Source: Aliirhizobium wenxiniae (lineage in GTDB: Bacteria > Pseudomonadota > Alphaproteobacteria > Rhizobiales > Rhizobiaceae). From it: a DNA stretch of 64,000 bases. Made by a program: the position numbers and the translations under genes. A model generated the notes under the pieces. The model was given only the letters and a program-made list of their open reading frames with translations, had not been told where the DNA came from and made no database searches. The stretch is from the NCBI RefSeq assembly GCF_014201355.1, contig NZ_JACHEG010000001.1, forward strand, positions 310,001 to 374,000. Direction: 5' to 3'. Below, in pieces: positions 10,427 to 23,582 of this stretch (positions are counted from its first letter, which is position 1; the number at the start of each line of letters is the position of its first letter).

Positions 10427-10447
10427 AAGGCATAGAAGGAACCGACG

Positions 10448-11482
10448 ATGGCGCAGGTCGATAAGTGCAAGATACCGCAGGCTTTCTGGCGGGCGACGGA
10501 GCAGTTCGGAATCCGTCCCGCAGCCCTGCTGCGGCAGGCGCGCCTGCCGGCGAGGCTACATCTTGGCGCGCAGGCCTTCGTCACCACGGCGCAGTATTTT
10601 GCGCTTATGCAGGCGATGGCCGATCTGGCCGGCGATGCAGCACTTGGCATCCGCATGGTTCAGATTGTCGATACGGCCGTCCATCCGCCGTCGAGCCTCG
10701 CCGCCTTCTACGCCCGAGACTATCGCGACGGCTTGACCCGGATCGCGCGCTTCAAGCGTCTGTGTACGCCGGAGCACCTGCAGATCGTCGAGGCGAACGG
10801 AGATTGCACCATATCCGTGGAATGGCCGTTCGCCACCGGCGCGGAGCCTGCGATTTCGGTCGATATCACCTTCGCGACGTTGGTGGAGCTTGGAAGGCGC
10901 GCCACCGGGCGACACATCTTGCCGCGCCGGCTGGAGCTTGCCCGACCGGGGCCGGCTGGCGCAACACACGCGGAGTATTTCTGCTGCCCTATCCGCGCCA
11001 GCGCGGCTCGCAACCTGCTGGTGATCGACGCGGCCGATCTCGACAGGCCGTTCCCGGGTCACAATCCCGAGATGCTGGAGATGTTGACGCCGGCCCTCAG
11101 CGCGGCGCTCGGCGAACTGGAAGCGCAAAGCTCGGTAAAGGAGCAGGTGAAGATCGTGCTGAAGCGCAGTCTCGCCAGCGGCCAGCCGGGCCTGTCCGAC
11201 GTGGCGAAGCAACTCGGCATGAGCGACAGGACGCTTCAGCGGCGCATCACCGGGGAGGGCTCGACCTTCCGCGACCTCCTGTCCGACGCGCGCCGGGATC
11301 TGGGCCGTCATCTACTTGCCGATCCGGCGACCGACATTGACGAAGTCGCCTGCCTGCTCGGCTACCAGGACACGACCTCCTTCTACCGCGCCTTCCGCGA
11401 ATGGGAGGGAATGTCGCCCAGCCGCTGGCGTGAAATAAACATGAACAGCCTCGGCCCGGCCGGAACCGTCGGTCTCCATTGA
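10448..11482 (+). CDS. AraC-family transcriptional regulator (OruR/ArgR type)
   Basis: 344 aa. The N-terminal about 200 residues fit the arabinose_bd-type ligand domain of the OruR/ArgR subgroup, and the C-terminal 95 residues hold the two AraC helix-turn-helix motifs (LSDVAKQLGMSDRTLQRRIT, then IDEVACLLGYQDTTSFYRAF) and the FREWEGMSPSRWR ending. It probably controls the flanking dehydrogenase genes; a palindrome overlapping a -10-like box upstream of the SDR is a candidate site. Start ATG at 10448 follows GAAGGA. Confidence 0.88.
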   Translation: MAQVDKCKIPQAFWRATEQFGIRPAALLRQARLPARLHLGAQAFVTTAQYFALMQAMADLAGDAALGIRMVQIVDTAVHPPSSLAAFYARDYRDGLTRIARFKRLCTPEHLQIVEANGDCTISVEWPFATGAEPAISVDITFATLVELGRRATGRHILPRRLELARPGPAGATHAEYFCCPIRASAARNLLVIDAADLDRPFPGHNPEMLEMLTPALSAALGELEAQSSVKEQVKIVLKRSLASGQPGLSDVAKQLGMSDRTLQRRITGEGSTFRDLLSDARRDLGRHLLADPATDIDEVACLLGYQDTTSFYRAFREWEGMSPSRWREINMNSLGPAGTVGLH

Positions 11483-11541
11483 GCCGACCTCCACTGCATC
11501 AAGAGCCGGGCGCTCGCTAGCGTACCAAAGGAGTCTATAGT

Positions 11542-12207
11542 ATGCCTCAACGCGTTCTTCTCGCCGGCAGTACCGGCTTGGTCGGCGGCCTCGTGGCTGC
11601 ACGGCTTGCCGGAGACGACAATATCGATCTCGTCAGCCTCATCCGGCGCGGGTCATCGGCATCGGGCCGGGCGATTGACTACGAAGGCCTCTGTGAGACG
11701 CCTGAACGGGTGTTGCGACCGATCGCGCCCGAAGGCGTCGATGTCGCCATCTCCTGCCTCGGCACGACCATTCGCACGGCCGGATCGCAGCCGGCCATGT
11801 TCCGGGTCGACCATGATTACGTGCTCGCCGTGGCGAAAGGCGCAAAGGCGCTTGGTGCACGCCAATTCATTCTCGTGACCTCGGCGAGCGCTGGTGGTCC
11901 CGGTTTTTATCTCCAGACAAAGGGCAAGATCGAGCAGGCGGTCATAGGTCTCGGCTTCGAGCAGCTTGACCTGATCCGCCCTGGCTTTCTCATCGGACAC
12001 CGCAACGAACGGCGCGTGTGGGAGGCGATCGGCCAGAGCATCTTCGCGGCTCTCACGCCGATCCTGCCCGGCCAGCTCTCCCGCTACGGAGCCATTCCCG
12101 CCGGGACCGTCGCGGATGCGATCGCCAGGCGCATCGCAGATGTGAAACCTGGCGTCACCATCATCGACAATGACGGCCTTAGACGTCTTTCCGGGTCTGG
12201 GCGTTGA
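11542..12207 (+). CDS. NAD(P)-binding Rossmann-fold oxidoreductase (atypical SDR / NmrA-like)
   Basis: 221 aa with an N-terminal nucleotide-binding motif LLAGSTGLVGG (residues 5-15) and the SCLGTT and VTSASAG segments typical of the NAD(P)H-binding atypical SDR family (YwnB/NmrA-like). Start ATG at 11542 follows AAAGGAG. It ends 123 bp before the left attachment repeat of the satellite, so the integration did not break it; before integration it would have run toward the 3' end of the tRNA-Ser gene. Confidence 0.82.
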   Translation: MPQRVLLAGSTGLVGGLVAARLAGDDNIDLVSLIRRGSSASGRAIDYEGLCETPERVLRPIAPEGVDVAISCLGTTIRTAGSQPAMFRVDHDYVLAVAKGAKALGARQFILVTSASAGGPGFYLQTKGKIEQAVIGLGFEQLDLIRPGFLIGHRNERRVWEAIGQSIFAALTPILPGQLSRYGAIPAGTVADAIARRIADVKPGVTIIDNDGLRRLSGSGR

Positions 12208-12330
12208 AAGCTCTTTTTGGGCTTCGGGCCCTTAGCCATTGACGCGAGCTTCCCCTGAGATCTGCCTCTAGAGGGTAAAAGGTGGCAATCGGCGGTAACC
12301 CGTTGGTAAAATCGCACGTTTTGATGAGAG

Positions 12331-12344
12331 TGGCGGATGGGGTG
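12331..12344. repeat. Left attachment-site core
   Basis: TGGCGGATGGGGTG, identical to 23493-23506 at the 3' end (CCA and acceptor strand) of tRNA-Ser. The identity ends abruptly on both sides. It lies 105 bp upstream of the integrase start and 123 bp after the last host gene. The rest of the gap 12208-12448 holds no gene. Confidence 0.8.
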
Positions 12345-12448
12345 TCCGCGTATCCGTGTAACGTATTGAAAATACGTATCAATAGACCTTGCCATTAGCC
12401 GTATTTTCCGTAATTTCCTTGTCGAGGTTATGACATTGGGGAAATGAC

Positions 12449-13633
12449 GTGGCTAAAGAAAAGCTCACCAAAACGAAAATTGAGAAGCTGACTAAGCCCG
12501 GTGTCTATAGCGATGGCGCGGGTCTTTTCCTACGCGTTCGGGTTGGTGGCTCAAAGTCTTGGCACTTCATATGGAAGAAGGACGGCAAGCGTTCTGAAAA
12601 AGCCCTTGGCCCATATCCCGGTTTCAGCACGCGACCGGTGACGCTGGAGCTTGCACGGGAAAAGGCTGACGAAATCCGAGAGCGGCTGGCCCGTGGGCAG
12701 GATGTTGAAAGCGATAAAGAAAAGGGCGAGCGGCCGACCTTCCGAGATATCATGCGAGATGTAATTGATATCAAGCAGAAGGCGTCCAAGAACGCGAAGC
12801 ACGCGGCGCAGTGGGCAATGACACTGGAAACCTATGCGAAGGCGCTTCACGCCCGCCCTGTAGGAGAAATTACGCTCGCCAATGTAGCTGACTGCCTCAA
12901 GCCTATATGGAGCGAAAAGCCGGAGACGGCTGACCGCACCCGAATGCGCATCGCCACGGTCATGGATGCTGCTAAGGTGCATGGGCACTACCAAGGGGAC
13001 AATCCGGCAGCGTGGAAAGGTGGGCTTGAGCACCTTCTTCCCGCCCGGTCTAAGCTGACGCGCGGTCACCACGCGGCATTGGATTACAAGGCCATGCCGA
13101 AAACCATGAAGGCTCTTCGCGCGTCCTCTGGCGTTTCTGCGCGCGCTGTTGAGTTCGCTGCTTTGACAGCAGGACGCTCCGGCGAGATACGCGGCGCGGT
13201 ATGGGGCGAGATCGACTTCGATGCAGCTGTTTGGATTATCCCCAAGGAGCGCATGAAAGCCGGGGTTGAACACCGTGTTCCGTTATCTGCTCGTGCAGTC
13301 GAGATTCTGCGAGAACGGGAACCCCATGCAACGGGCGCGCTTATTTTCGAGGGTGGCAAGGAAGGCCAGCCAATAAGCGATACGGCGATGGTGAAAGCTT
13401 TACGGCTTGCCAGCGGAACGGGAGACACGTTGCACGGGCTGCGATCTACATTCCGCGATTGGGCTGGCGATGAAACTCATTACCCTAGGGACGTCGCGGA
13501 AGCAGCCTTGGCCCACGCTGTGAGGGATAAAACTGAGGCAGCTTATAGGCGCTCAGATGCACTAGGAAAGCGTCGTGCCCTGATGACCGATTGGGCCGCT
13601 TACTGCGGAAAAGATGCGGAACCGAAGTCTTGA
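12449..13633 (+). CDS. int: P4-type tyrosine integrase
   Basis: 394 aa, GTG start with GGGGA 8-9 nt upstream. Residues 1-85 form the DUF4102 arm-type DNA-binding domain (KLTKTKIEKL, SDGAGLFLRV), about 95-200 the core-binding helices, and 210-380 the catalytic domain. The tyrosine recombinase residues can be placed: R243 in TAGRSGE, K270, H329/R332 in HGLRSTFRDWA, H356 in LAHAV and the nucleophile Y366. Integrases of this class use tRNA 3' ends, which fits the repeat at tRNA-Ser. It is at the end of the element away from the tRNA. Confidence 0.93.
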   Translation: MAKEKLTKTKIEKLTKPGVYSDGAGLFLRVRVGGSKSWHFIWKKDGKRSEKALGPYPGFSTRPVTLELAREKADEIRERLARGQDVESDKEKGERPTFRDIMRDVIDIKQKASKNAKHAAQWAMTLETYAKALHARPVGEITLANVADCLKPIWSEKPETADRTRMRIATVMDAAKVHGHYQGDNPAAWKGGLEHLLPARSKLTRGHHAALDYKAMPKTMKALRASSGVSARAVEFAALTAGRSGEIRGAVWGEIDFDAAVWIIPKERMKAGVEHRVPLSARAVEILREREPHATGALIFEGGKEGQPISDTAMVKALRLASGTGDTLHGLRSTFRDWAGDETHYPRDVAEAALAHAVRDKTEAAYRRSDALGKRRALMTDWAAYCGKDAEPKS

Positions 13634-13667
13634 TGGCTCAAGCAAAAAAATGTTTTAGGCCGCGTTT

Positions 13668-13696
13668 TTGTCAACAGATTAGCGAAAAAATATACT
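13668..13696 (+). promoter_or_regulatory. Satellite promoter 1 (alpA-rep operon)
   Basis: TTGTCA (13668-13673), 17-bp spacer, TATACT (13691-13696). It is a near-copy of the promoter at 18131-18159: TTTAG.CCGC..TTTTGTCAAC and the GAAAAA run before TATACTT recur, as do TGCG.TTTTT and GCGGAG.TATAA.CCA downstream. An imperfect inverted repeat (GCGTTTTTT and AAGAAACGC) follows the predicted start and could be an operator. Confidence 0.65.
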
Positions 13697-13855
13697 TGAG
13701 CCTATTTTGCGTTTTTTAGTTGCGAGCAAGAAACGCGCGGAGCTATAAACCATCCATCGCAAGTGAATTGGCGATCACCCGAACAATCAGCGCGTTTTCG
13801 TACCGGCCAAAGGAGGTCCGGTAATGACGAAGTGCGTCCAGAGAAAGGAGAATAT

Positions 13856-14059
13856 ATGCCTGAAAATACTTTGCCGCGCCTTATGTCCCCGAAGGAAGCA
13901 GCGGCCGAAACCACATTTTCCGCTGTGCAGCTTACGCTTTTGAGCGCAACCGGTCATTTCCCGAAAGCCGTCCAGCTTTCCACCCGTCGTATCGCTTATG
14001 TGCGTAGTGAAGTGACAGCGTGGCTTGATGAGCGAATTGCCCGCCGCACGGCTCACTAG
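13856..14059 (+). CDS. AlpA-family excisionase/transcriptional regulator
   Basis: 67 aa from the ATG at 13856, preceded by AAAGGAG; the frame is open upstream but not coding-like. The sequence fits AlpA proteins: RLMSPKEAAAETTFS, then GHFPKAVQL..RRIAYVRSEVTAWLDERIARR, a winged helix-turn-helix of the MerR/excisionase type. In satellites AlpA-like proteins activate the integrase or packaging genes. The stop codon overlaps the GTG start of the Rep-like gene (TAGTG), so the two are translationally coupled. A strong AGGAGG site also precedes another ATG at 13824 in a different frame. Confidence 0.85.
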   Translation: MPENTLPRLMSPKEAAAETTFSAVQLTLLSATGHFPKAVQLSTRRIAYVRSEVTAWLDERIARRTAH

Positions 14060-15198
14060 TGGAAGCGCATGCAAATGACTCCCCCGGTTGGGGCGGGAAG
14101 TTCAATTTCGAAAAGCTAGGCAAGAGGCGGGCAGCTATCGAGCCGCAGGCGAGTGGGCCTCAATCGGAAATCAAAAGCCGCTTCAGCCTGATATGGGCGC
14201 ATGACATCGGAGACGAGGATAACCACAAGGAATGGATTATCCGGGACATCTTCGGCGCTGGTGAATTCTCTTACATCGTAGGTCAGCCCGGAGCCGGGAA
14301 GAGCATGTGCGCGACCGATATGGCGTGTCACCTCGCAGCCGGTTGGGATTGGCACGGCTTTAAGGTGAAGAAGCCGAGCTTTGTGCTCTATATCGCGGCA
14401 GAACGGGCCAAACTGACGCGTAGACGCATTAAGGCTTGGCGCAAAAAGCATTGCTTCAGCGACGATCTGCCGGTGCTGGTTGTGTCTGGCTACATGAACC
14501 TGACGGACGGGCTGGAAGACGCGAAAGAGATAATCAGCGTCATTGAGCAGGCGGAAGGTGAATGCGGGCTGGAATGCGGTCTTATCGTAATCGACACATT
14601 GACCCGTGTCTTCGGTGGCGGCGATCAGAACGCCTCTAAGGACATGACCCGGCTGATTGATGCAGTGAGCTTGATACAAGAGACCGTTCCTCGCGCGCAT
14701 GTTTCCGTCATCCACCATACCACCCATGCAGGTACGCGAGCCAAAGGCGCGATTGATCTGGATGGCGCGGTTGATGTGTCGTTCATGGTCGGGCCGAAGG
14801 GCGGCGCCGTGGTGCTGGAGAATACCGGCGCGAACGATGGCAAAGAAGGCGACCTAATGGCCTACGAGTTCGAAAGCGTGACGCTCGGCAAGGATGACGA
14901 AGGGGAATGGACTACTGCCCCGGTTCTCGTTCCAGTGTCCCTGCCGGACACAAACGGAAAAGGGCTGCCGCCCCTGTCGAAGAGCCATAAGGACATTTTG
15001 GAAATTGCGCGCGAGTTAATGGGTGACAAGGAAGAGCCTGTTCCCGGCCAGTTGGTCAGGGAAGCCTATTACACGAAATACCCGAACAAGGATCGGGAGA
15101 CGCTCAAGCGGGGATATAGCCGCGCAATCAAGTCATTGAAGGATCGGGGACTTGTAGACGCCTCTGACGGCTTCGTTTCGATCATTGAGGGACATTAG
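14059..15198 (+). CDS. RepA-like AAA/RecA-fold replication ATPase
   Basis: 379 aa, GTG start overlapping the alpA stop. An AAA_25/RepA-like RecA-fold domain covers about residues 60-270: Walker A GQPGAGKS (75-82), LYIAAERAKLTRRRI, Walker B LIVIDT (175-180), and HHTTHAGTRAKGA. This family includes hexameric plasmid RepA helicases. The C-terminal 70 residues look like a winged helix (VREAYYTKYPNKDRETLKRG). Its 3' end and the next 90 bp carry a cluster of GGGACA/TGTCCC repeats, so it probably starts replication of the excised element at that site. Confidence 0.8.
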   Translation: MEAHANDSPGWGGKFNFEKLGKRRAAIEPQASGPQSEIKSRFSLIWAHDIGDEDNHKEWIIRDIFGAGEFSYIVGQPGAGKSMCATDMACHLAAGWDWHGFKVKKPSFVLYIAAERAKLTRRRIKAWRKKHCFSDDLPVLVVSGYMNLTDGLEDAKEIISVIEQAEGECGLECGLIVIDTLTRVFGGGDQNASKDMTRLIDAVSLIQETVPRAHVSVIHHTTHAGTRAKGAIDLDGAVDVSFMVGPKGGAVVLENTGANDGKEGDLMAYEFESVTLGKDDEGEWTTAPVLVPVSLPDTNGKGLPPLSKSHKDILEIARELMGDKEEPVPGQLVREAYYTKYPNKDRETLKRGYSRAIKSLKDRGLVDASDGFVSIIEGH

Positions 15199-15290
15199 GG
15201 ACATTTGGGGGACATTGTCCCGTTTGTCCCGGACATCGTAGGGGGACGGACAGGGACACACACCTTTAGGTGTGTCCCGGTGTCCCTCTG
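15187..15290. repeat. Iteron cluster, candidate replication origin of the satellite
   Basis: Within about 100 bp there are four GGGACA and four TGTCCC hexamers: GGGACATT at 15189, 15198 and 15209, GGGACA at 15253, and TGTCCC at 15216, 15225, 15273 and 15281. A small hairpin (ACACACC-TTTA-GGTGTGT) sits in the right half. The cluster starts in the last codons of the RepA-like gene. Satellite and plasmid origins commonly place initiator iterons next to the initiator gene. Function is inferred. Confidence 0.6.
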
Positions 15291-15321
15291 TCTGACACCA
15301 AACTAAGAAGGAGATACAATC

Positions 15322-15576
15322 ATGGAAGGAATGCGCGAACAAAACGAAATGGTCATCCGGGCAACGGTAGGCGAGCCGGTGGCGTGGGATGGTGGCGAAG
15401 AGGGACATGTGCAACGGTTGTTGACGCTCTTGCGCAAAAGGACCGTGCCATCTGAGCCTATGACGCTGGCACGGCTTACGGGCTTAACGCGGCTGGATGT
15501 CAACAAGTACCTGTTGCGGCTGAAGCGGGCCGGTCTGGCTGATCCAGTCAGTCATGGCAAATGGGTTGCTGTATGA
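15322..15576 (+). CDS. Small winged-helix DNA-binding protein
   Basis: 84 aa, ATG preceded by AAGGAG. The C-terminal half reads as a winged helix (VQRLLTLLRKR, LARLTGLTRLDVNKYLLRLKRAGLADPV, GKWVAV). It lies directly after the iteron cluster and could be a replication accessory factor, a repressor or a small-terminase substitute; no family assignment is possible. Its stop overlaps the next start (ATGA). Confidence 0.65.
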   Translation: MEGMREQNEMVIRATVGEPVAWDGGEEGHVQRLLTLLRKRTVPSEPMTLARLTGLTRLDVNKYLLRLKRAGLADPVSHGKWVAV

Positions 15577-15707
15577 AGCGCGGCAATCTGAACAGACAGG
15601 TGTTTGCACATAACAGCCGGGACAACCGATTGCCGAAACAGCCGATACCGGTGAAGGCGCAGGTGATTGTTGCTGCCGCTATGCGGCAGGTTGCCCGACC
15701 CTCATGA
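15573..15707 (+). CDS. Small basic protein of unknown function (44 aa)
   Basis: The ORF starts with an ATG that overlaps the previous stop (ATGA) and ends with a stop that overlaps the start of the HNH gene (ATGA). It is basic (MKRGNLNRQVFAHNSRD...). The double overlap in a translationally coupled chain is the main reason to believe it. No family is recognised. Confidence 0.5.
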   Translation: MKRGNLNRQVFAHNSRDNRLPKQPIPVKAQVIVAAAMRQVARPS

Positions 15708-16033
15708 GCAAATGGCCGTACAACACGGCGCAATGGCAAAGGCTCAGGCAGGCCAAGCTGATGGAGTGCCCGGTCTGCGAAGTGTGTCGTGCGCGTGGTG
15801 TCATCGAACTGGCAGACGTGGTTGACCATGACAAGGCGATCAATGCGGGCGGGTTAGCCTTTCCGCCTCTGTCCGACCTGACCAGCATGTGTGCATCCTG
15901 TCATAACCGCAAGACGAATGCGAAGGACCGACGCACCGCCAAGACAGGCAAGAGCAGCGGCTTTAGGCGGGCGTGGGCTGGCTTCTCAGAAAGCGGTGAC
16001 CCGATTGACCCGGAAGGCTGGACCGATGCCTGA
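15704..16033 (+). CDS. HNH endonuclease
   Basis: 109 aa. The zinc-ribbon HNH fold is visible: CPVCEVC, then VVDHDKAI with the catalytic DH, and CASCHNRKT. In many HK97-like phages and satellites an HNH protein of this size sits beside the terminase and works with it in genome cleavage for packaging. The position before the large terminase fits that role. The 156-bp gap that follows holds small inverted repeats (CCTACC/GGTAGG, CCTTC/GAAGG, GACGA/TCGTC) and is a reasonable place for a cos or pac site, but no such site is proven. Confidence 0.85.
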   Translation: MSKWPYNTAQWQRLRQAKLMECPVCEVCRARGVIELADVVDHDKAINAGGLAFPPLSDLTSMCASCHNRKTNAKDRRTAKTGKSSGFRRAWAGFSESGDPIDPEGWTDA

Positions 16034-16189
16034 CGGGCCTACCTGACCGAACCCAAGGGTAGGGGGCCTTCAAAGACGAAGGATCGAGTGCCTGGGATCG
16101 GCGATGGTCATTGGTGAAGACTTAGTTCCAAATTTTGAACGACGAAAAGGAAATCGTCATGGAAAAGTGAACAATGAAAGGAGACTATT

Positions 16190-17854
16190 ATGGGCCGTCG
16201 TGGACCCGGCGCGAAGCCGAAAGCATCCGGGAAGACCGGGGATATCATGAGTGGGGCGGGTAGCAAGCACCGCAAGGTGCTTCCATGGAATGAGCCGGGG
16301 CTTTCTCGCCTCGAAGCCGTTGTCGCATTCGTCAACGACATGAAGATTACGCAGGGCAAACTTGCGGGCCAGAACATGCAGTTGCGTGACTGGCAGATAG
16401 ACGAATTCCTTGCGCCGATTTACGCCGTTGACGAATTCGGACGCCGCCCGGTGCGCACGGCAGTGCTCTCGATGGGCCGCAAGAACGGGAAGACCGGCCT
16501 TAGCGCAGCGCTTGCCCTTTGCCATCTAGTAGGCCCAGAGGCGGAACAGCGCGGGGAATTGTACTTTGGGGCAATGGACAAGATTCAGGCCGGTAAGGCT
16601 TGGGCAGAGTGCAAGGCTATGCTGGAAGCGCACGTCGAGCTTTCGGAGCGCGTAAACATTATCAAATTCAGCAAGGAAATCGAGGTCGAGCCGGGTTATC
16701 CCGGTGAAGGCTCCGTCCTGAAGGCTGTGAGCGCCGATGCCGATTCCAAGCTCGGTTTGTCGCCTTCATTCTTCCTTGCCGACGAGGCCGGGTATTGGGT
16801 GAAGCGCGACCTATTCGACGCCATGGATTCCGCCCTTGGTGCGCGGGACGAACCGCTTGTGGTGGTAATTTCCACACAGGCAAAGGACGACACCCACTTC
16901 TTTTCCGAGATGATCGATTACGGCGTGAAGATAAAGACGGGCGAGATCGAGGACGAGAGCTTTCATCTGGCATTTTTCACGACTGACCCTGATGAAGATG
17001 CATGGTCTTACGAAACGTGGATCAAGGCCAATCCGGCATTAGGCGATTTTCTTGCCCTTGAACAGGTTGAGCGCATGGCGGCGCAGGCGCAGCGTATCCC
17101 CTCGAAGGAGGCCGATTTCAGAAACAAGATTCTGAATCAGCGGATCGACGGCACGGTGCGGTTCATCGCGGCGCGGGAGTGGAACGATTGCGATCTAGGC
17201 CCGATTGACGAAGATGCGTTGGTAGGCCGGGAATGCTACGGCGCTCTTGACCTGTCGGCAGCACGAGACTTGACTGCGTTCGTTCTGGTATTCCCGGAAG
17301 AGGATGGCCGCTTCACGGTTCTGCCGCGCTTCTTCCTGCCGGAATTCGATATCGCCGGGAAGAGCGAGAATGACCGCGTTCCTTACGATGTTTGGGCGCG
17401 TCAGGAATCGTCGCGGCTCACGCTGTTGCCGGGCAAGGTCATAGACCCTGCCTTGGTGGCGGAATACATCGCGGATGAGGCTGGGCGGTTCGATATCAAG
17501 GAAATTGCTTTCGACCGGTGGCGCATTGAAGACCTGAAGCGAGAGCTTTCCAAGGCTTCCATTGATCTACCGTTGCAGCCGTTTGGACAGGGATACAAAG
17601 ACATGTCTCCAGCCGTTGACATGCTGGAGGTGGCCGTTGCGCAACAGAAGGTCAACCACGCCGGAAACCCGTTGCTTCGGATGTGCGCGGCTAATGCTGT
17701 GGTGACCAAAGACCCGTCCGGCGCTCGTAAACTCGATAAATCGAAGGCTTCAGGCAGGATCGACGGGCTTGTTGCGCTCGCGATGGCATTGCAGACTGCC
17801 GCGCGACATGAGGAAGACGATTCACTTCCGGCGTGTTTGATGGAAGATGCTTAA
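16190..17854 (+). CDS. Phage terminase large subunit (HK97 type)
   Basis: 554 aa, full length. The N-terminal GRRGPGAKPK segment and RDWQIDEFLAPIYA are typical of the Terminase_1 family. The ATPase domain has a Walker A-like MGRKNGKTG (residues 95-103) and Walker B FLADE (195-199); the C-terminal RNase H-like nuclease starts at YGALDLSAARDLTAF and continues through FDRWRIEDL to RIDGLVALAMAL. It packages DNA into the element's own heads. No recognisable small terminase precedes it. Start ATG follows AAAGGAG. Confidence 0.93.
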   Translation: MGRRGPGAKPKASGKTGDIMSGAGSKHRKVLPWNEPGLSRLEAVVAFVNDMKITQGKLAGQNMQLRDWQIDEFLAPIYAVDEFGRRPVRTAVLSMGRKNGKTGLSAALALCHLVGPEAEQRGELYFGAMDKIQAGKAWAECKAMLEAHVELSERVNIIKFSKEIEVEPGYPGEGSVLKAVSADADSKLGLSPSFFLADEAGYWVKRDLFDAMDSALGARDEPLVVVISTQAKDDTHFFSEMIDYGVKIKTGEIEDESFHLAFFTTDPDEDAWSYETWIKANPALGDFLALEQVERMAAQAQRIPSKEADFRNKILNQRIDGTVRFIAAREWNDCDLGPIDEDALVGRECYGALDLSAARDLTAFVLVFPEEDGRFTVLPRFFLPEFDIAGKSENDRVPYDVWARQESSRLTLLPGKVIDPALVAEYIADEAGRFDIKEIAFDRWRIEDLKRELSKASIDLPLQPFGQGYKDMSPAVDMLEVAVAQQKVNHAGNPLLRMCAANAVVTKDPSGARKLDKSKASGRIDGLVALAMALQTAARHEEDDSLPACLMEDA

Positions 17855-17869
17855 TGTGAAGGACATGTA

Positions 17870-18121
17870 ATGTTTGAAGTTGGCAAGGCATATGTACTGA
17901 CGATTAGTGATAACGAGGGCTGGTTTTCAGGGATAAGGCAGGACAAAGTGCGGCTAGATTACTTATGCGTTTCTATCAATGGAGAGATCGTAACTTTCGA
18001 GCCTGTGAAGCTGGCCCACAATGAAAAGAGCGTCGCGAAACGCGGGGTTACCCTATTCGACACCACAAGCCCTAAGTTCATCTCGGCATTCGAATACGAT
18101 GGCCCTATCGAAAAGATTTAG
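17870..18121 (+). CDS. Hypothetical protein (83 aa) between terminase and capsid operons
   Basis: 83 aa; starts MFEVGKAYVLTISDNEGWFS 15 bp after the terminase stop. It looks beta-rich, with no signal peptide or membrane segment. No family is recognised. Its stop codon lies only 10 bp before the -35 box of the capsid promoter, and the sequence around that stop is part of the duplicated promoter module. Confidence 0.6.
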   Translation: MFEVGKAYVLTISDNEGWFSGIRQDKVRLDYLCVSINGEIVTFEPVKLAHNEKSVAKRGVTLFDTTSPKFISAFEYDGPIEKI

Positions 18122-18130
18122 CCCGCAATT

Positions 18131-18159
18131 TTGTCAACCAAAACAGTGAAAAATATACT
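18131..18159 (+). promoter_or_regulatory. Satellite promoter 2 (capsid operon)
   Basis: TTGTCA (18131-18136), 17-bp spacer, TATACT (18154-18159), identical hexamers and spacing to the promoter at 13668-13696 and similar flanks on both sides. The replication and capsid operons therefore seem to share one control sequence. Confidence 0.65.
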
Positions 18160-18288
18160 TCCTTGCCAAATGCGATTTTTGCTTGTTCGACAGTAAAAGC
18201 GGAGTATAACCACAGTCATCGAGCGGCAGCAAAGACCGCGCCGTTCGAAACACTCATACAATTCGAAGAGCTTCGCCCCGCTTAAGGG

Positions 18289-18314
18289 ACGGGCAGCCCG
18301 TGCCATCGGCACGG
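18289..18314 (+). promoter_or_regulatory. Overlapping hairpins in the long capsid leader
   Basis: The gap 18122-18433 (312 bp) holds promoter 2 and a leader of about 270 nt. In it, ACGGGC-A-GCCCGT (18289-18301) and CCGTGCC-ATC-GGCACGG (18298-18314) share four bases, so in RNA only one can form fully. This could be an attenuator-like switch or a protein-binding or packaging site. It does not end in a U run. No gene is seen in the leader. Confidence 0.4.
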
Positions 18315-18433
18315 AATAAACCAGCCGTTCAACGCGACCGGCACCAACAAACCCAACATCGTTGCGCCTACCCAACCGAAGCAATTCCGCATCGGCATGG
18401 CTCTTTGCGCGCTTATTCAGAAGGAGACCATAT

Positions 18434-19633
18434 TTGAATATCCATCATCTTCGCGAAACCCGTGCTGCCAAACTCGCCGCTATCAAGGCTCTTGGCGACA
18501 ATCCCGACAATGCGCAGTTTGCGACACTCGAAACCGAAATCCGCTCTCTTGACGGCCAGATCAAGAATGCTGCGACCATTTCAGAGTTTGAGCGTCATGA
18601 GCAGTCTCCGAATGGTGACATGGCCCGCGAACTGCGCAGCTACTCGGTTTCGAAGGCGATCCGCGAAGGCAATAGCGACAACCTGACCGGCCTTGAGCGC
18701 GAAGTTCATGAAGAGCTTTCTCGTGGCCGTGAAGTCCGTGGCCTGATGATCCCGACCGCCGCAATCTTTGGCGATGAGAACCGCGCGATGCTGACCTCAG
18801 GGACCGCAGGCAATACCGTTGCCACTGATATGGGCGGCCTGATCGACCGTATCCGCCCGACGCTGGCGGTGCAGGGTCTTGGCGCTACGATCATTTCCGG
18901 CCTGACTGGCAATCTCGATCTCCCGCGTCTGACCAGCGGCCCAACCGCCCATTGGGTCAATGAGGACGAGGCCACGACGGCGAGCGACGCGACCTTCGAC
19001 AAGGTTTCGCTGAAGCCGAAGACGGTTTCCGGTGAGATGTATCTGAGCCGACGCCTTCAGCTTCAGAACGGCGTTGCGCTCGAAAACGTTCTCCGCAACG
19101 ATCTGGCCTTCGTTCTGGCGCAGGCTCTCGATGCCGCCGCGATCAACGGCCTTGCAGCTAATAAGCAGCCGGTCGGCATCCTGAATGCTATTGCCGAAAC
19201 CGTCACCACGTCTCCCGCGTTCATCTCGGATACCACGGCTGATCTGATCGCAGCGCTTGAGCTTGACGACGTGACCGGCACCACAGGCTTCCTGACGAAC
19301 AAGAGCCTCATGGGTCAGGTCCGCAAGGTGAAGACCCTTGGCCGCGTGATCCCGGTTTCGGAACTGTTCCACGGCGAAAAGGTGGTTTCCACCAATCAGG
19401 TTCCTAAGGTCGGCGGCAAAGACCCGCTCATCTTCGGCGCATGGAGCAACCTGCTCATCGGTTATTGGAGCGGCGTCGATATCCTTCTGAACCCGTATTC
19501 GGACGCTTCCAAGGGCGGTCTGCGCATGCACGCCTTCCTCGACGCTGATATCGCAGTTCGCCACAACGAGGCGTTTGCATGGACTTCTACGGAGATCGCA
19601 GAAGACCAGACCGCAGGCAACAACAACGGCTAA
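18434..19633 (+). CDS. HK97-like major capsid protein
   Basis: 399 aa from a TTG at 18434 placed 7 nt after AAGGAG; the frame is open back to 18362 but that part overlaps the structured leader. Residues 1-60 form a charged coiled coil (LRETRAAKLAAIKAL, LETEIRSLDGQI), the built-in scaffold (delta) region of HK97-type capsids, cleaved by the protease encoded downstream. From about residue 100 the HK97 fold follows (MIPTAAIF..., RLTSGPTAHWVNE, the ALDAAAINGL segment). It makes the shell of the satellite's own particle. Confidence 0.92.
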   Translation: MNIHHLRETRAAKLAAIKALGDNPDNAQFATLETEIRSLDGQIKNAATISEFERHEQSPNGDMARELRSYSVSKAIREGNSDNLTGLEREVHEELSRGREVRGLMIPTAAIFGDENRAMLTSGTAGNTVATDMGGLIDRIRPTLAVQGLGATIISGLTGNLDLPRLTSGPTAHWVNEDEATTASDATFDKVSLKPKTVSGEMYLSRRLQLQNGVALENVLRNDLAFVLAQALDAAAINGLAANKQPVGILNAIAETVTTSPAFISDTTADLIAALELDDVTGTTGFLTNKSLMGQVRKVKTLGRVIPVSELFHGEKVVSTNQVPKVGGKDPLIFGAWSNLLIGYWSGVDILLNPYSDASKGGLRMHAFLDADIAVRHNEAFAWTSTEIAEDQTAGNNNG

Positions 19634-19911
19634 TGGCAGCGGTCGAACTAGCCGAAGCGAAGACTCACCTCCGCGTAGATTACGCGGAGGATGACTCCTA
19701 CATCGCAGGCCTCATTAGCGCGGCGGAAAACTACGTCTCGGAAATCGGCGTCACCATCGCTGATCCGGCACAGCCAGCCGTGAAACACGCAATCCTTCTC
19801 CTTGTCGGCCATTGGTACAATTACCGCGAAGCCGCCGCCGAGAAGCCCCCACAAGCCATCGCTTTCGGTGTCAACGCCCTTGTGCAACCCTTCAGGGAGG
19901 TGTCCTTTTGA
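19633..19911 (+). CDS. Head-tail connector protein (gp6/QLRG family)
   Basis: 92 aa from the ATG at 19633, whose first base overlaps the capsid stop (TAATG). LAEAKTHLRVDYAEDDSYIA followed by a helix to YVSEIG is the signature of the gp6-like connector family, which forms the ring below the portal. Its stop overlaps the start of the protease gene. Confidence 0.88.
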   Translation: MAAVELAEAKTHLRVDYAEDDSYIAGLISAAENYVSEIGVTIADPAQPAVKHAILLLVGHWYNYREAAAEKPPQAIAFGVNALVQPFREVSF

Positions 19912-20453
19912 CCAATATCGAGAAGCGCGCCGCAACGGACGTTAAAGCATCCGGGCGCAAACTGACGGGCTATGTTGCCACCTTCGGGCTTGAAACGCGT
20001 ATCGGTGATTTCCGGGAGACCATCAGGGCAGGGGCGTTTTCTGCCAGCCTTCGCAGCAACCCGGATATCCTTGCCTTAGTCGATCATGACCCCGGCAAGA
20101 TTCTTGGCCGTAGTGGTTCGGGCAGCCTGATCCTTGCAGAGGATCAAAGAGGCCTCCGCTTCGAACTGGAATTGCCGGATACACAGCTTGGCCGAGATAT
20201 CTCTGCATTGGCTGCGCGTGGTGACATCGGTGGCATGTCGTTCGGCTTCAACGTCCCTGAAGGCGGTGATGAATGGGCCGGAGAGCTGCGGACGCTCAAG
20301 GCCATCGACCTCCGCGAAATCAGCATCGTGCAGGCCTTCCCGGCCTATAGCGGCACTTCGATCTCAGTTCGGTCCCGCTACGCGATGACCGATGCTGCCC
20401 GACGCATCCGCATTCTGGAACTGGAAGGAGGCGCCTATGTGGAATCCGTTTAG
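19908..20453 (+). CDS. HK97-family prohead protease (U35)
   Basis: 181 aa from a TTG at 19908 that overlaps the connector stop (TTGA), after GGGAGGTG. Serine protease fold: the catalytic histidine lies in LVDHDPGKILGRS and the serine in GGMSFGF, the standard U35 pairing; LREISIVQAFPAYSGTSI ends the domain. It would mature the capsid by cutting the N-terminal delta region. It follows the capsid gene instead of preceding it as in HK97. Confidence 0.92.
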   Translation: MTNIEKRAATDVKASGRKLTGYVATFGLETRIGDFRETIRAGAFSASLRSNPDILALVDHDPGKILGRSGSGSLILAEDQRGLRFELELPDTQLGRDISALAARGDIGGMSFGFNVPEGGDEWAGELRTLKAIDLREISIVQAFPAYSGTSISVRSRYAMTDAARRIRILELEGGAYVESV

Positions 20454-21645
20454 CACGAAAGAAAGCCGCGCCGTTGCCACAAGTGATCCTTATCTAGGCG
20501 AATTCCTCGGTGCGCGCTGGCAGGCACGGGCCGACATTGAAAAGGCCAGCGGCCATGCCGTCGCCCATCGGTGCATTCAGCTTATTGCGGAGCAACTGTC
20601 GTCAGTCCCTCTGAAGGTCTACCGCAGAGAGGCAGACGGGGGCCGTGTAGCGGCTTCGGACCACGCCCTTTACTCGGTGCTTCAGGATAGCTTTTCGCCG
20701 TTCCTGACCGCGTTTGAGGGCCGGGAATGGATGCTGGTTTCCGCCCTGATGTATGGCAATGCCTATGCTCGCATCGAGCGGAATGGCCGCAGCCAGATTG
20801 CCGCGCTTCATCCGCTGAAGTCGCCAAGCGTCACGGTCGAGCGGCTTTCGTCTGGTCGGTTGCGCTACAAGGTGGCGAAGGACAACGGCGGAACGGAGGT
20901 CTTCACTCAAGACGAGATTCTCCATGTCCGCTATCGGACGGGTGACGGCGTTCTAGGTCTGTCGCCTATCCAGATCGCAAGCGCGGCCTTCGGTCTCGCT
21001 CTTGCGCAGCAGGACACGGCGGGCGCGGCGGCAGAGAACAGTTTCCGACCGGCTGGCGCTCTGGTGTTCCCTGAGAAGCTAGGCGGCACCGGCAAAGATG
21101 ATGCGATCAAGAAGTTCAAGGAGCGCTTCGTCGGCCAGCTTAAAGCCAATGAGGTCATGGTGCTGGATGGCGGTGCGAAATTTGAGACCTTCCAGTTCAA
21201 CAGCAAGGACTCGGAATTTCTCGATAGCCGCAAGCTCTCGAATCTGGATGTCTGCCGGGTTTGGGGTGTTCCTCCGTCAGCGGTCGGAATCACTGACGAT
21301 GCGACCTATTCGAATATTGGCGAAGAAAGCCGCGCTCTGGTGAATCGAGTCCTTGCGCCTTGGGCTAAGAGGTTCGAGTCGGTCTACAACGCCACGCTGC
21401 TTTCGCCTGAAGCTCGCAAGACACATTACATCGAGCATGACCTATCCGGCTTGCTTCGTGGTGATCTGGCTACCCGTTACGAGGCGTACCGCGTGGGCCG
21501 CGAAGCTGGCTTCCTGTCCGTCGATGAGATTCGCGGGTTCGAAAACATGAGCAAGGTCGAGGGCGGCGATACGTACATGCGGCCTTTGAACATGGCTCCG
21601 CTCGGTGTGACCCAAAACGCCCAGGCATCGGAGGCCACGCAATGA
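20437..21645 (+). CDS. Phage portal protein (HK97 type)
   Basis: 402 aa from the ATG at 20437 after GGAAGGAG, overlapping the protease gene by 17 bp. Typical portal features: an N-terminal ASGHAVAHRCIQLIAEQLSS helix, LMYGNAYARIERN, DEILHVRY, the FRPAGALVF segment, SKDSEFLDSRKLSNLDVCRVWGVPPS (clip/wing region) and the C-terminal crown helices. It forms the dodecameric DNA entry ring. Finding it after capsid and protease is an inverted order compared with HK97. Confidence 0.93.
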   Translation: MWNPFSTKESRAVATSDPYLGEFLGARWQARADIEKASGHAVAHRCIQLIAEQLSSVPLKVYRREADGGRVAASDHALYSVLQDSFSPFLTAFEGREWMLVSALMYGNAYARIERNGRSQIAALHPLKSPSVTVERLSSGRLRYKVAKDNGGTEVFTQDEILHVRYRTGDGVLGLSPIQIASAAFGLALAQQDTAGAAAENSFRPAGALVFPEKLGGTGKDDAIKKFKERFVGQLKANEVMVLDGGAKFETFQFNSKDSEFLDSRKLSNLDVCRVWGVPPSAVGITDDATYSNIGEESRALVNRVLAPWAKRFESVYNATLLSPEARKTHYIEHDLSGLLRGDLATRYEAYRVGREAGFLSVDEIRGFENMSKVEGGDTYMRPLNMAPLGVTQNAQASEATQ

Positions 21646-21986
21646 CGGGCGGCGGCGATCTTCGCGGGGTTTTCGAATTTCGGAAGGCTGACGACGGTAA
21701 CGACGGCTTCGGGGGCGTGATCCCCGGAGCCGGTCCCGTCACGACGATCTTCACCACGTCAGGCCGGATCGACGTTCGTAGTGGTGATGAAATGGTTTTG
21801 AACAACTTGCCTCGCGGCGTTTCCACCGTGGAAATCATCGTCCGTCAGCAGCCCGCCACCAAGGCCGTCAACACAACATGGAGCATCCGGGAAAAGCGTT
21901 CCGGGCGCTCTTACAACGTCAAGATGATGAAGCCAGACCAGAAAGGAGCTTTCATCACGTTTACAGCAGAAGGAGGCACGCCATGA
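21642..21986 (+). CDS. Head closure / head-tail adaptor protein
   Basis: 114 aa; ATG overlaps the portal stop (ATGA). The pattern GVFEFRKADDGNDGFGG..., then a beta barrel ending SIREKRSGRSYNVKMMKP fits the phage head-closure family (phage_H_T_join; HK97 gp7/SPP1 gp16 type). It closes the filled head and provides the surface for the tail. It is the last recognised structural gene: no tail terminator, tail tube or tape measure follows. Confidence 0.8.
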   Translation: MTGGGDLRGVFEFRKADDGNDGFGGVIPGAGPVTTIFTTSGRIDVRSGDEMVLNNLPRGVSTVEIIVRQQPATKAVNTTWSIREKRSGRSYNVKMMKPDQKGAFITFTAEGGTP

Positions 21987-22297
21987 TTAACGTAAAGACG
22001 ATCAGCATTGAACCGCTTGGCAGGAGCTACGACCGGGAGACCGGCGCGCGTCGTCTGGCGAAGATTCAGGTGTTCTTGCCCGACCTGCAAACGACGCTCC
22101 GAGATATCATCCTGACCCATGACCACGAAGTAGGTTTCGTGGCGACCCCTGAGCGGCCTAAGAAAGGCGCTGCGCCTATCCAGTGGGTGCGAGGCTCGGG
22201 ATTCGCAAAAGCCGTCTCTGAGGCTGGTGCGGAAGCCTATAGCAGCATGCTTGCCGAAGACATCGCCGAACTGAAGGAGCTTTTCGAAGCCGCCTGA
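21983..22297 (+). CDS. Hypothetical protein (104 aa), last gene of the capsid operon
   Basis: 104 aa; the ATG overlaps the previous stop (ATGA) and is preceded by AAGGAGG. Soluble, with a beta-rich middle (IQVFLPDLQTTLRDI, HEVGFVATPERP) and a C-terminal acidic helix. The middle weakly recalls SpoVG-like nucleic-acid-binding folds, but I do not claim that. In the place where a tail terminator would be expected, it may be a tail-docking or helper-interference factor. Confidence 0.55.
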   Translation: MINVKTISIEPLGRSYDRETGARRLAKIQVFLPDLQTTLRDIILTHDHEVGFVATPERPKKGAAPIQWVRGSGFAKAVSEAGAEAYSSMLAEDIAELKELFEAA

Positions 22298-22300
22298 TCA

Positions 22301-22330
22301 AAAGCCCCTTGGTTGACGCCTTGGGGCTTT
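22301..22330. terminator. Terminator between capsid operon and DUF4062 gene
   Basis: AAAGCCCC (22301-22308) pairs with GGGGCTTT (22323-22330), with a 14-nt loop. It lies 3 bp after the 104-aa gene stop and 4 bp before the end of the convergent DUF4062 gene, so it can serve both strands. Confidence 0.65.
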
Positions 22331-22334
22331 GCTT

Positions 22335-23324
22335 TCAATCGTCTTCGGCTTCTCGTTTTTCCGTGCCGCCCGCTGTGTCGGAGACCATAAGTCTCTGTTT
22401 CTCAGCAAGAGCGAGAAGCCTCATTCCTTTTTCAGTCAGATAGCTGCGCCTGACCGCGCTTCCTGTTGGCTTCTCGTTGGCGGCGAGCTCATGAATAATC
22501 AATTTCGGAAATACGACATTATACAAAAACCTAGTACCCGGATTAGTTGCCCCCTGAACAACGCCGTTCACTAGACTATTTGAATATGAAGACATCAAGC
22601 TGGCCAAATCCTTCGTTGCGGGTGGCCGACCTGACACGTCTTCCGGCACAACGATTGAAGTAAGTCTCAGAATTTCCAACTTTTCTTCTAGATCATCATA
22701 TGATCCGGATGTCTTGCCGCTTTTCTGCGCCGAGGTTTTTGCGGATTTAGCTGCGTCCAATTCCGCTCGGAGACGGGTAATTTCAGCATGCAGGGCAGAA
22801 GCGTCAACAATTTCCGCTGCGGACACCCAGCCAACTAGATCGGCTTTATGACCGAGTTCTCCGAGACTTTCGTGTATGGCAAGCTTGATATCGCGGTCAT
22901 CAGAGAAAAATGCTGACATCGTGCTCAGCACCTTCTCACGAAATTTTTTCAGCGCTTGAGGATCGCTTTGCTCGAATACGGATGACCCGACCAGTTTTAC
23001 CTTGGCCTCTAGAGCGGCTTCATTGATCACCACCGAAAACAACGGCTTCTTTTGCTCTACCGCGTAGTCGTATTCCATCTCGGTGTAGCTGACACCCGTA
23101 GCGGTATCTACAGAGCCGTAACGTCCGCCGAGAATCAGCATATAGACGTCAGATTCGTCTATCCATCGCTTGATGATCTCCCACTGCGACTTGTCGCTGG
23201 CAGTAAAAAGTTCCATGCCAGCGGGAATATGTCCCGCCTTTAGAATGGCTTGTACCGCAGCCTGTCGTTCAGACTGCAAATCAGTGAACGTACTGGAGAC
23301 GAATACCTGAAGTTTTTTTCTCAT
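22335..23324 (-). CDS. DUF4062 domain protein, cargo gene of the satellite
   Basis: 329 aa. The N-terminal 90 residues are a DUF4062 domain (LQVFVSSTFTDLQSERQAAV, MELFTASDKSQWEIIKRWID, YMLILGGRYGS..., SYTEMEYDYA), a TIR-like fold common at the front of STAND NTPases and other defence proteins. A coiled coil follows (residues about 170-210, AEITRLRAELDAAKSAK) and then a helical C-terminal domain with no recognised family. It stands alone on the opposite strand at the right end, where satellites carry cargo. A role in excluding rival phages is inferred, not shown. Confidence 0.8.
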   Translation of the reverse strand: MRKKLQVFVSSTFTDLQSERQAAVQAILKAGHIPAGMELFTASDKSQWEIIKRWIDESDVYMLILGGRYGSVDTATGVSYTEMEYDYAVEQKKPLFSVVINEAALEAKVKLVGSSVFEQSDPQALKKFREKVLSTMSAFFSDDRDIKLAIHESLGELGHKADLVGWVSAAEIVDASALHAEITRLRAELDAAKSAKTSAQKSGKTSGSYDDLEEKLEILRLTSIVVPEDVSGRPPATKDLASLMSSYSNSLVNGVVQGATNPGTRFLYNVVFPKLIIHELAANEKPTGSAVRRSYLTEKGMRLLALAEKQRLMVSDTAGGTEKREAEDD

Positions 23325-23492
23325 GGGAAAATCCGCGCATTATCGAGTGATGTAACGTGTACTTATTCGAGCAACGCCTTCAACTACGCGCAAAAGTTAT
23401 CAACAAACTACAAGAAAACATGGGGCCGCGAAAACCCTGAGGTTATGTCACTCGGAATTTTTTCGGCATAAGTGATTGATTTTATTATTAAA

Positions 23493-23506
23493 TGGCGGAT
23501 GGGGTG
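23493..23506. repeat. Right attachment-site core, in the tRNA-Ser 3' end
   Basis: TGGCGGATGGGGTG, identical to 12331-12344. Read on the minus strand it is the acceptor 3' strand and CCA of tRNA-Ser, so the tRNA stays intact when the element is present. Confidence 0.8.
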
Positions 23507-23582
23507 GGATTCGAACCCACGGTACGGTTCCCCGCACGACGGTTTTCAAGACCGTTGCCTTAAACCACTCGGCCACCCATCC
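23493..23582 (-). tRNA. tRNA-Ser(UGA)
   Basis: 90 nt, class II tRNA. The acceptor GGATGGG pairs with CCCATCC, followed by G73 and an encoded CCA. The anticodon stem ACGGT/ACCGT holds the loop CTTGAAA with anticodon TGA (complement at 23546-23548). A long variable arm and the GTTCGAATC T-loop are present. Its 3' end is the integration target of the satellite. Confidence 0.95.

What the first reader, a model, noticed from the sequence alone, without database searches (positions are those of the whole stretch)
12331..23506. Complete tail-less, capsid-encoding phage satellite (cf-PICI-like) in a rhizobial chromosome
An 11.16-kb element has integrase, AlpA, Rep-like ATPase, iterons, HNH, large terminase and all HK97-type head genes (capsid, connector, protease, portal, head closure), but nothing for tails, lysis or lysogenic repression. 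The genes overlap by a few bases with no pseudogenes, which argues against a decayed prophage. This fits the capsid-forming PICI strategy (own heads, helper tails), described in other bacteria; a rhizobial member with this gene order may be new.
Basis: partly seen in the sequence, partly recalled or inferred. Interest (0 to 1): 0.93.

Follow-up and report, generated by a model that had tools for sequence, protein, structure and literature searches.

The report
Head-only phage satellite in a rhizobium
A short stretch of integrated DNA in a rhizobium-type chromosome carries the genes to build and fill a virus head but none recognised for a tail, and many relatives share this gene set, so it is best read as a phage satellite that makes its own heads and borrows another virus's tails.

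Summary
A discrete 11,162-bp element (12331-23492) sits at tRNA-Ser(tga), bounded by a 14-bp repeat; a sister genome has the site with one copy. It encodes integrase, AlpA, Rep ATPase, HNH, TerL and a full HK97-type head set; none of its 14 scanned genes matches a tail, lysis or repressor family. Of 80 IMG/VR loci with a related capsid gene, 74 hold capsid, protease and portal, all in that order; terL lies upstream in 64 of 64. Five of 11 relatives tested have end repeats 10.5-11.5 kb apart. dN/dS is far below 1, which argues against a decaying prophage. Exceptions: 4 of 80 carry one tail-tube-like gene, one a tape-measure gene. The capsid clade is separate from the E. coli head-only element Sp7 (p-AU 7e-5). 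No small terminase was recognised; helper dependence is untested. Verdict: new variant of a known kind; it works like a capsid-forming PICI, without formal membership. Side finding: three relatives sit inside the gene-transfer-agent terminase gene.

The parts
12331..12344 (+). attL, 14-bp core TGGCGGATGGGGTG
   Evidence: exact match to the tRNA-Ser 3' end; single copy in the sister genome stretch
12449..13633 (+). tyrosine integrase (394 aa)
   Evidence: PF00589, PF22022, PF13356; phrog_1 1.1e-43
13668..13696 (+). promoter-like TTGTCA-17-TATACT before the alpA-rep genes
   Evidence: consensus scan, whose total of 6 sites is near the 4.4 expected by chance; same hexamers and register as 18131 (family D5); a copy at this place was not found in L087-L095
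13853..14059 (+). AlpA-type excision/regulatory protein (68 aa)
   Evidence: PF05930 1.8e-7; phrog_66 6.8e-9
14059..15198 (+). Rep-like AAA_25 helicase/ATPase (379 aa)
   Evidence: PF13481 1.4e-33; phrog_906 2.1e-43
15185..15288 (.). iteron-like array GGGACA/TGTCCC, putative replication origin
   Evidence: 8 of the element's 15 copies lie in 15183-15300; 7 copies in L095; other repeated units at the same place in the other close relatives
15322..15576 (+). 84-aa winged-helix-like protein; looks like the C-terminus of the larger Rep proteins of relatives
   Evidence: phrog_2440 0.0032; by eye on the translations
15704..16033 (+). HNH endonuclease (109 aa)
   Evidence: PF01844 2.8e-5; phrog_2323 1.6e-18
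16190..17854 (+). large terminase TerL (554 aa)
   Evidence: PF20441 2.8e-35, PF03354 9.2e-14; phrog_9 2.4e-131
17870..18121 (+). o83, small conserved protein of unknown function
   Evidence: no family; related proteins in relatives
18131..18433 (+). promoter-like site TTGTCA-17-TATACT and conserved leader before the capsid gene
   Evidence: TTGTCA in 10 of 10 aligned loci, full motif in 9; about 54 nt nearly invariant in the leader
18434..19633 (+). HK97-fold major capsid protein (TTG start, 399 aa)
   Evidence: PF05065 6.3e-34; TIGR01554 1.4e-36
19633..19911 (+). head-tail connector (gp6-like, 92 aa)
   Evidence: PF05135 2.9e-12; TIGR01560 3.2e-21
19902..20453 (+). prohead protease S78
   Evidence: PF04586 7.2e-40
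20434..21645 (+). portal protein
   Evidence: PF04860 9.4e-94; TIGR01537 1.6e-63
21642..21986 (+). head completion protein (head-tail interface)
   Evidence: PF05521 1e-8; no PHROG match
21983..22297 (+). o104, possibly SpoVG-like regulator (weak)
   Evidence: profile vs PDB: SpoVG 2i9z E 0.027, 2i9x 0.33, 2ia9 0.34, among 8 weak hits; Pfam SpoVG 0.06 in 1 of 22 members, none in the window's own protein
22335..23324 (-). DUF4062 protein, probable cargo
   Evidence: PF13271 9.2e-31; no PADLOC match; also in L095
23493..23506 (+). attR core inside the tRNA 3' end
23493..23582 (-). tRNA-Ser(tga), integration target, intact
   Evidence: ARAGORN; RF00005

Best explanation
It is an integrated phage satellite that makes its own heads. 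Shown: a discrete 11.2-kb unit at a tRNA-Ser with att repeats; integrase and AlpA genes for integration and excision; a Rep ATPase gene with an iteron-like array; TerL and HNH; a complete HK97-type head set under purifying selection; no recognised tail, lysis or repressor gene; the same set in many related elements. Inferred: infection or induction by a helper phage triggers excision; Rep replicates the circle from the iteron array; the element builds procapsids matured by its S78 protease; TerL and HNH package its own DNA; connector and head-completion proteins close the head and accept the helper's tails; the helper's lysis genes release the chimeric particle.
For: Domain searches. att core and empty site. 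Same architecture in relatives: order capsid-protease-portal in 74 of 74 loci holding all three (of 80), terL upstream of the capsid in 64 of 64 holding both, INT1- or INT2-family integrase in 67 of 80. Locus lengths 8,985-13,226 bp in 59 of 80, median 10.7 kb (short contigs are fragments and a few were cut). End-to-end units of 11,175, 11,135, 11,527, 10,524 and 10,970 bp in 5 of 11 tRNA-bearing relatives tested, at tRNA-Arg or tRNA-Ser. Median dN/dS 0.027-0.198 for 12 genes in 10 loci. E. coli Sakai Sp7 shows a head-only plan with order capsid-protease-portal-adaptor, opposite to HK022's portal-protease-capsid.
Against: No induction, packaging or transfer data. No small terminase recognised. 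No helper identified: the genome's only other PF04860 portal is in a gene-transfer-agent cluster, with no PF10145 or PF04984 match. Four of 80 relatives carry a tail-tube-like gene (L096, L105, L106, L109; L033 has an ORF of the same length at that place) and one a tape-measure gene, so the lineage is not strictly tail-free. Six of 11 relatives tested gave no end repeat.
Confidence: 0.82

Rival explanations
1. A decayed prophage that lost its tail, lysis and repressor genes and kept a head module by chance.
For: HK97-type head genes are common in prophages; isolated tail genes in 5 of 80 relatives could be remnants; TerL is 41% identical to HK022-type phage terminases.
Against: Same gene set and order across a broad lineage; low dN/dS in all 12 genes measured; recurring unit size with own ends at different tRNAs; gene order inverted relative to HK022 and to the closest tailed-phage capsid group.
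Confidence: 0.06
2. An autonomous small virus whose delivery device is unrecognised (for example an unknown tail encoded by the small ORFs).
For: Several conserved small ORFs have no family (o83, o104, gap genes of relatives).
Against: About 11 kb leaves little room for a tape measure or tail genes after the head set; no lysis gene recognised; o104 leans weakly towards SpoVG, not a tail fold.
Confidence: 0.05
3. A host-domesticated head module (GTA-like or encapsulation device) rather than a mobile element.
For: Related capsid genes are not rare in this bacterial family (44 of 394 genomes with some match at 1e-10, 10 genomes besides the own at 50% identity or more over nearly the whole protein).
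Against: Patchy presence, integrases, different tRNA targets, a site without the element in a sister genome; the genome has its own separate GTA cluster.
Confidence: 0.03
4. A satellite as in the best explanation, but its tail donor is the host's gene transfer agent rather than a phage.
For: The only tail module found in this genome is the GTA cluster; three relatives are inserted inside the GTA terminase gene; the connector of one of these, L038, has the GTA connector as best hit (48% over 33 residues).
Against: Head-tail interface proteins are mostly not GTA-like: of 65 connectors 63 had a hit, best to Sp7 in 54 and to GTA in 9; of 38 head-completion proteins 12 had a hit, best to HK022 gp9 in 9 (all of the GTA-inserted ones), to GTA in 2, to Sp7 in 1; the window's own had none (small reference set). 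Prophage searches were not exhaustive.
Confidence: 0.06

Closest known systems
Capsid-forming PICIs (cf-PICI/cfPICI)
   Same: Own capsid, protease, portal, connectors, HNH and TerL, no tails; integrated (description from passages of PMC10690885). Capsid-protease-portal order as in E. coli Sp7.
   Different: Compared with Sp7: HNH-TerL lies before the capsid gene, not after; connector lies between capsid and protease; no recognised small terminase; AAA_25 Rep instead of an annotated primase; capsid clade excludes Sp7 (p-AU 7e-5).
E. coli Sakai Sp7 (NC_002695.2:1594711-1610171)
   Same: Head-only element of 15.5 kb; blastp identity TerL 29%, protease 40%, portal 30%, connector 30%, HNH 34% (the HNH-like protein is annotated 'holin' in the record).
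   Different: Window capsid against Sp7 capsid only E 0.34, though some relatives' capsids match it weakly (best 1.5e-14, L040); has TerS, primase and SSB. I recall that its EDL933 counterpart is the cf-PICI EcCIEDL933; not verified here.
Vibrio cf-PISP satellite-plasmid TG54 (PMC13230959, passages read)
   Same: Head-only satellite with PF05065 capsid, no tail genes.
   Different: Episomal with parA/repA and no integrase; capsid reported to cluster with gammaproteobacterial cf-PICIs.
Streptomyces satellites MulchRoom/MiniFlayer (PMC10690885, passages read)
   Same: Satellites with their own capsid and packaging genes.
   Different: Parasites of virulent phages with direct terminal repeats; reported to have no significant homology with cf-PICIs.
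Helper-embedded PICIs (PMC10111431, passages read)
   Same: Satellites integrated in late genes of a helper; comparable to the relatives found inside the GTA terL gene.
   Different: Targets there are prophage late genes; the terms 'gene transfer agent' and 'GTA' do not occur in its text. The window's element is at a tRNA.

Membership tests
cf-PICI | full capsid set: capsid, maturation protease, portal, connectors | tested here: met
cf-PICI | packaging set: TerL and HNH | tested here: met
cf-PICI | small terminase TerS | tested here: inconclusive
   No scanned protein of the element matches a TerS family, apart from a weak phrog_4581 hit (1.7e-5) of the HNH protein (Pfam none); 9 proteins from the terL-capsid gap of relatives gave none. 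TerS can be too divergent for profiles.
cf-PICI | integrase with att sites and PICI-type regulator (feature partly recalled) | tested here: met
   integrase, 14-bp att core, AlpA
cf-PICI | own replication module with origin (feature recalled) | tested here: inconclusive
   AAA_25 Rep gene and iteron-like array; origin function not tested
cf-PICI | no tail genes; depends on helper for tails | tested here: met
   no tail match among the 14 scanned genes of this element; not met in 5 of 80 relatives that have one tail-like gene
cf-PICI | induced by a helper phage and mobilised with its tails | not testable with these tools
   needs induction and transduction experiments
cf-PICI | capsid groups with published cf-PICI capsids | tested here: inconclusive
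   A clade with one E. coli element (Sp7) is rejected, p-AU 7e-5, but PMC11389934 says cfPICI capsids form three distinct clades; the others were not available
Temperate tailed prophage | tail module | tested here: not met
   L095 and L109 likewise, apart from one tube-like gene in L109
Temperate tailed prophage | lysis genes and repressor | tested here: not met
   no match; only a weak regulator hit, phrog_2440 0.0032
Gene transfer agent (RcGTA type; features recalled) | host cluster with portal-protease-capsid and tail genes, no integrase | tested here: not met
   the genome's GTA-like cluster is elsewhere, on contig C2
Classical PICI, P4-like, PLE (feature recalled) | head taken from the helper | tested here: not met
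   the element has its own complete head set

The most novel reading that the evidence does not exclude
Alphaproteobacteria carry their own radiation of capsid-forming satellites, arisen apart from the E. coli-type ones, and part of it exploits gene transfer agents: related elements insert in the GTA large-terminase gene, cutting off its last roughly 41 codons, and might use GTA tails and GTA release for their own heads.
Probability: 0.1. Interest if true: 0.9.

Novelty: new variant of a known kind. Interest (0 to 1): 0.62.

Why it matters
If right, rhizobia and their kin host a common class of mobile elements that need only tails from others. Such elements can move cargo genes (here a DUF4062 gene) between strains by a route that ordinary prophage annotation would score as an incomplete phage. 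A separate alphaproteobacterial clade would add to the evidence that head-only satellites arose repeatedly. The GTA-inserted relatives give a direct way to ask whether satellites parasitise gene transfer agents.

Tried and rejected
Decayed prophage: rejected on shared order, selection and unit size. Self-contained tailed phage: little room and no recognised tail genes. GTA-like head-tail interface: tested; mostly not found, with L038's connector as an exception.

Tail genes in relatives: a first PHROGs scan of 134 proteins, representing 134 of 235 non-core families of the 80 loci, listed only 25 of 124 matched families and showed one tail hit. That cut hid a second one, a tail-tube-like family, found later. 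I then rescanned plus-strand proteins downstream of terL: of 95 representatives 90 were passed on, five that looked like host genes were left out, and the tube-like protein was added, in sets of 44 and 47. The first set lists 25 of 32 families, the second all 7; no further tail family appeared among those shown. Seven weaker families of the first set stay unseen; minus-strand ORFs were not in this rescan.

Structure prediction of o104 and o83 could not be run: the machine was busy at each of 13 tries; the SpoVG hint rests only.

My guess that the E. coli cf-PICI was at Sakai Sp1/Sp2 was wrong; Sp7 was the head-only element. The paper that defined cf-PICIs is not held, so the description comes from passages in other papers.

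Literature: ten searches listed no paper that, by title and start of abstract, treats head-only satellites in rhizobia. The library is open-access only. I read passages found by term in six papers, and a term search of a seventh found nothing; no paper was read whole.
Full report
What is there. The element spans 12331-23492 and is bounded by a 14-bp repeat that is the 3' end of tRNA-Ser(tga). The tRNA stays intact on the right; the integrase lies at the other end. In the sister genome G400 (same genus, 93.6% and 95.5% DNA identity in the flanks) the stretch read has one copy of the core, and window positions 9189 and 23493 are about 120 bp apart. G400 therefore also lacks 9190-12330, a neighbouring accessory stretch without a core. 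Domain searches identify integrase, AlpA, an AAA_25 Rep, HNH, TerL, capsid, connector, S78 protease, portal and head-completion genes, and no tail, lysis or repressor family among the 14 genes scanned. Three small proteins lack firm names: an 84-aa winged-helix-like protein, o83, and o104, whose profile leans weakly towards SpoVG. A DUF4062 gene on the minus strand looks like cargo; no PADLOC model matched it. Among isolated phages the capsid is at best about 34% identical (62 records matched, 30 listed), the TerL 41% (HK022 type).

Relatives. In the bacterial family, 44 of 394 genomes have some match to the capsid protein at 1e-10, the own one included; 10 others have 50% identity or more over nearly the whole protein. 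With the capsid profile A1, 6 of 385 genomes of the class match at 1e-30 and 15 of 398 of the phylum at 1e-20, each count including the window's own genome; several of these lie in long open frames (594-738 aa), the capsid type of tailed phages. Loci of the 80 with each family: capsid 79, portal 76, protease 74, TerL 64, connector 64, HNH 46, Rep 38, head completion 36, o104 26 (own simple gene caller; contigs of 4-8 kb are fragments). Order capsid-protease-portal: 74 of 74 loci holding all three; TerL upstream of the capsid: 64 of 64; connector between capsid and protease: 60 of 63; INT1- or INT2-family integrase: 67 of 80. Of 11 tRNA-bearing loci tested for end repeats, 5 gave one of 14-18 bp at the tRNA 3' end, with units of 10,524 to 11,527 bp; 6 gave none, and some of those contigs may be cut. 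L095 and L109 end at a tRNA-Ser(tga) like the window's, and L109 also has, by eye, a homologue of the window's next gene, a DPBB protein.

Is it alive or dead? In 10 close loci median pairwise dN/dS lies between 0.027 and 0.198 for the 12 genes tested; the highest single pair is 0.402 (Nei-Gojobori, only pairs with dS between 0.05 and 1.5, 7 to 45 pairs per gene; synonymous sites are near saturation for several genes; alpA was not tested). The head-completion protein is the least conserved of the structural proteins (median identity 0.61, against 0.93 for the capsid and 0.95 for TerL), as expected if it meets different tails, though small proteins often vary more.

Against the simple story. 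A first scan of non-core proteins was cut at 25 of 124 families. A later one showed that a family between TerL and capsid in L096, L105, L106 and L109 (4 of 80) is a major tail (tube) protein by PHROGs (phrog_1407, 2.5e-20, scanned on the L106 member). L147 has a tape-measure gene and no TerL call. Rescans of 44 and 47 representative proteins found no further tail family among those listed. So the window's element has no recognised tail gene, and five relatives of 80 carry a single tail-like gene.

Where it stands. In a capsid tree of 82 rows (45 of the 79 IMG/VR capsids kept after thinning at 75% identity and 330 aa, plus 37 others; some fetched relatives such as L035, L038 and L041 were not put in), the 60 rows I labelled satellite by gene content form one side of a branch with SH-aLRT 80 (not strong). 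By branch length the closest other group is 13 capsids of the long type, six of them from the isolated tailed phages Mano, Mica, VP882, RcCronus, S-LBS1 and Bas97 (support 99); the fork that joins the groups is unresolved. The E. coli Sp7 capsid groups with a GTA capsid (98), and a clade of the 60 with Sp7 is rejected (p-AU 7e-5). Long rows such as HK022 are present, so deep placements are unsure. The order capsid-protease-portal is shared with Sp7 and opposite to HK022, while the phages of the closest group run portal-capsid. PMC11389934 (passages) states that cfPICI capsids form three clades; I could not test whether this is one of them.

Mechanism. I infer the cf-PICI scheme: own heads, own packaging, borrowed tails and lysis. 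Shown are the gene set, the ends, the site without the element and the selection; excision, replication, packaging, helper and transfer are inferred. Regulation: a TTGTCA-17-TATACT site stands in the same register before the alpA-rep genes and before the capsid gene of the window; the number of such sites in the element (6) is near chance (4.4 expected). The capsid copy is kept in 10 aligned loci, 9 with the full motif, followed by a conserved leader with about 54 nearly invariant bases; the alpA copy was not found in L087-L095. The iteron-like array after rep keeps its place in close relatives while its unit changes.

Helper. The genome's only other PF04860 portal belongs to an RcGTA-like cluster; PF10145 and PF04984 gave no match. 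This does not exclude other prophages or outside phages.

Side finding. In L037/L121 (one genome), L038 and L134 the head-only element lies inside the GTA terminase gene. The bulk of TerL lies on one side and the last roughly 41 codons (starting MCDF or MCEF) directly follow the element's integrase on the other, with ATGTGCGA at both junctions. The integrases of L037 and L134 are 79% identical; that of L038 (83% to L037) has a stop codon inside the match. A search of 356 family genomes found 6 with this integrase type at 1e-50: in 3 of them (G002, G196, G097) the GTA terminase end follows, in the other 3 no terminase match was found in the flanks read. The G097 case (62% identity) is a different element with its own terL and a TMP-like gene. 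L050 also has part of a GTA terminase beside a broken element. Interface proteins of the GTA-inserted elements are mostly not GTA-like (L038's connector is the exception), so use of GTA tails is only a possibility.

Noticed in passing
L037:2669-14052, L038:2-11474, L134:3248-15123: Head-only elements inserted inside the gene-transfer-agent large terminase gene, cutting off its last roughly 41 codons, with ATGTGCGA at both junctions; a related integrase in G097 (L207, L211) marks another element at the same site.
   Followed up: partly
L106:4207-4653, L105:7854-8300, L109:5488-5892, L096:5500-5946: A tail-tube-like gene (phrog_1407, scanned on the L106 member) between TerL and capsid in four relatives that otherwise show no tail gene.
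   Followed up: partly
L147:6783-8801: A tape-measure gene (phrog_8892, 2.6e-133) before the capsid gene in an element where no TerL was called.
   Followed up: no
window 18131-18433: Conserved promoter-like site and leader before the capsid gene; about 54 nt nearly invariant in 10 loci; a consensus fold exists but covariation is slight (5 of 63 pairs with a double change).
   Followed up: partly
window 9190-12330: Accessory stretch with SDR-like, AraC-type regulator-like and epimerase-like genes, absent from the sister genome together with the element and without an att core; 10448-12330 found in 0 of 8 same-genus genomes searched.
   Followed up: partly
L089:9925-10779 and window 22335-23324: The right end of close relatives holds varying cargo: DUF4062 in the window and L095, a different 284-aa protein in L089.
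   Followed up: no
head-completion genes of L086-L095: Two distinct head-completion protein types occur among close relatives (L086, L091, L093, L095 against L087-L090, L092), not following the o104 types, which hints at swapping at the tail-facing gene (by eye).
   Followed up: no
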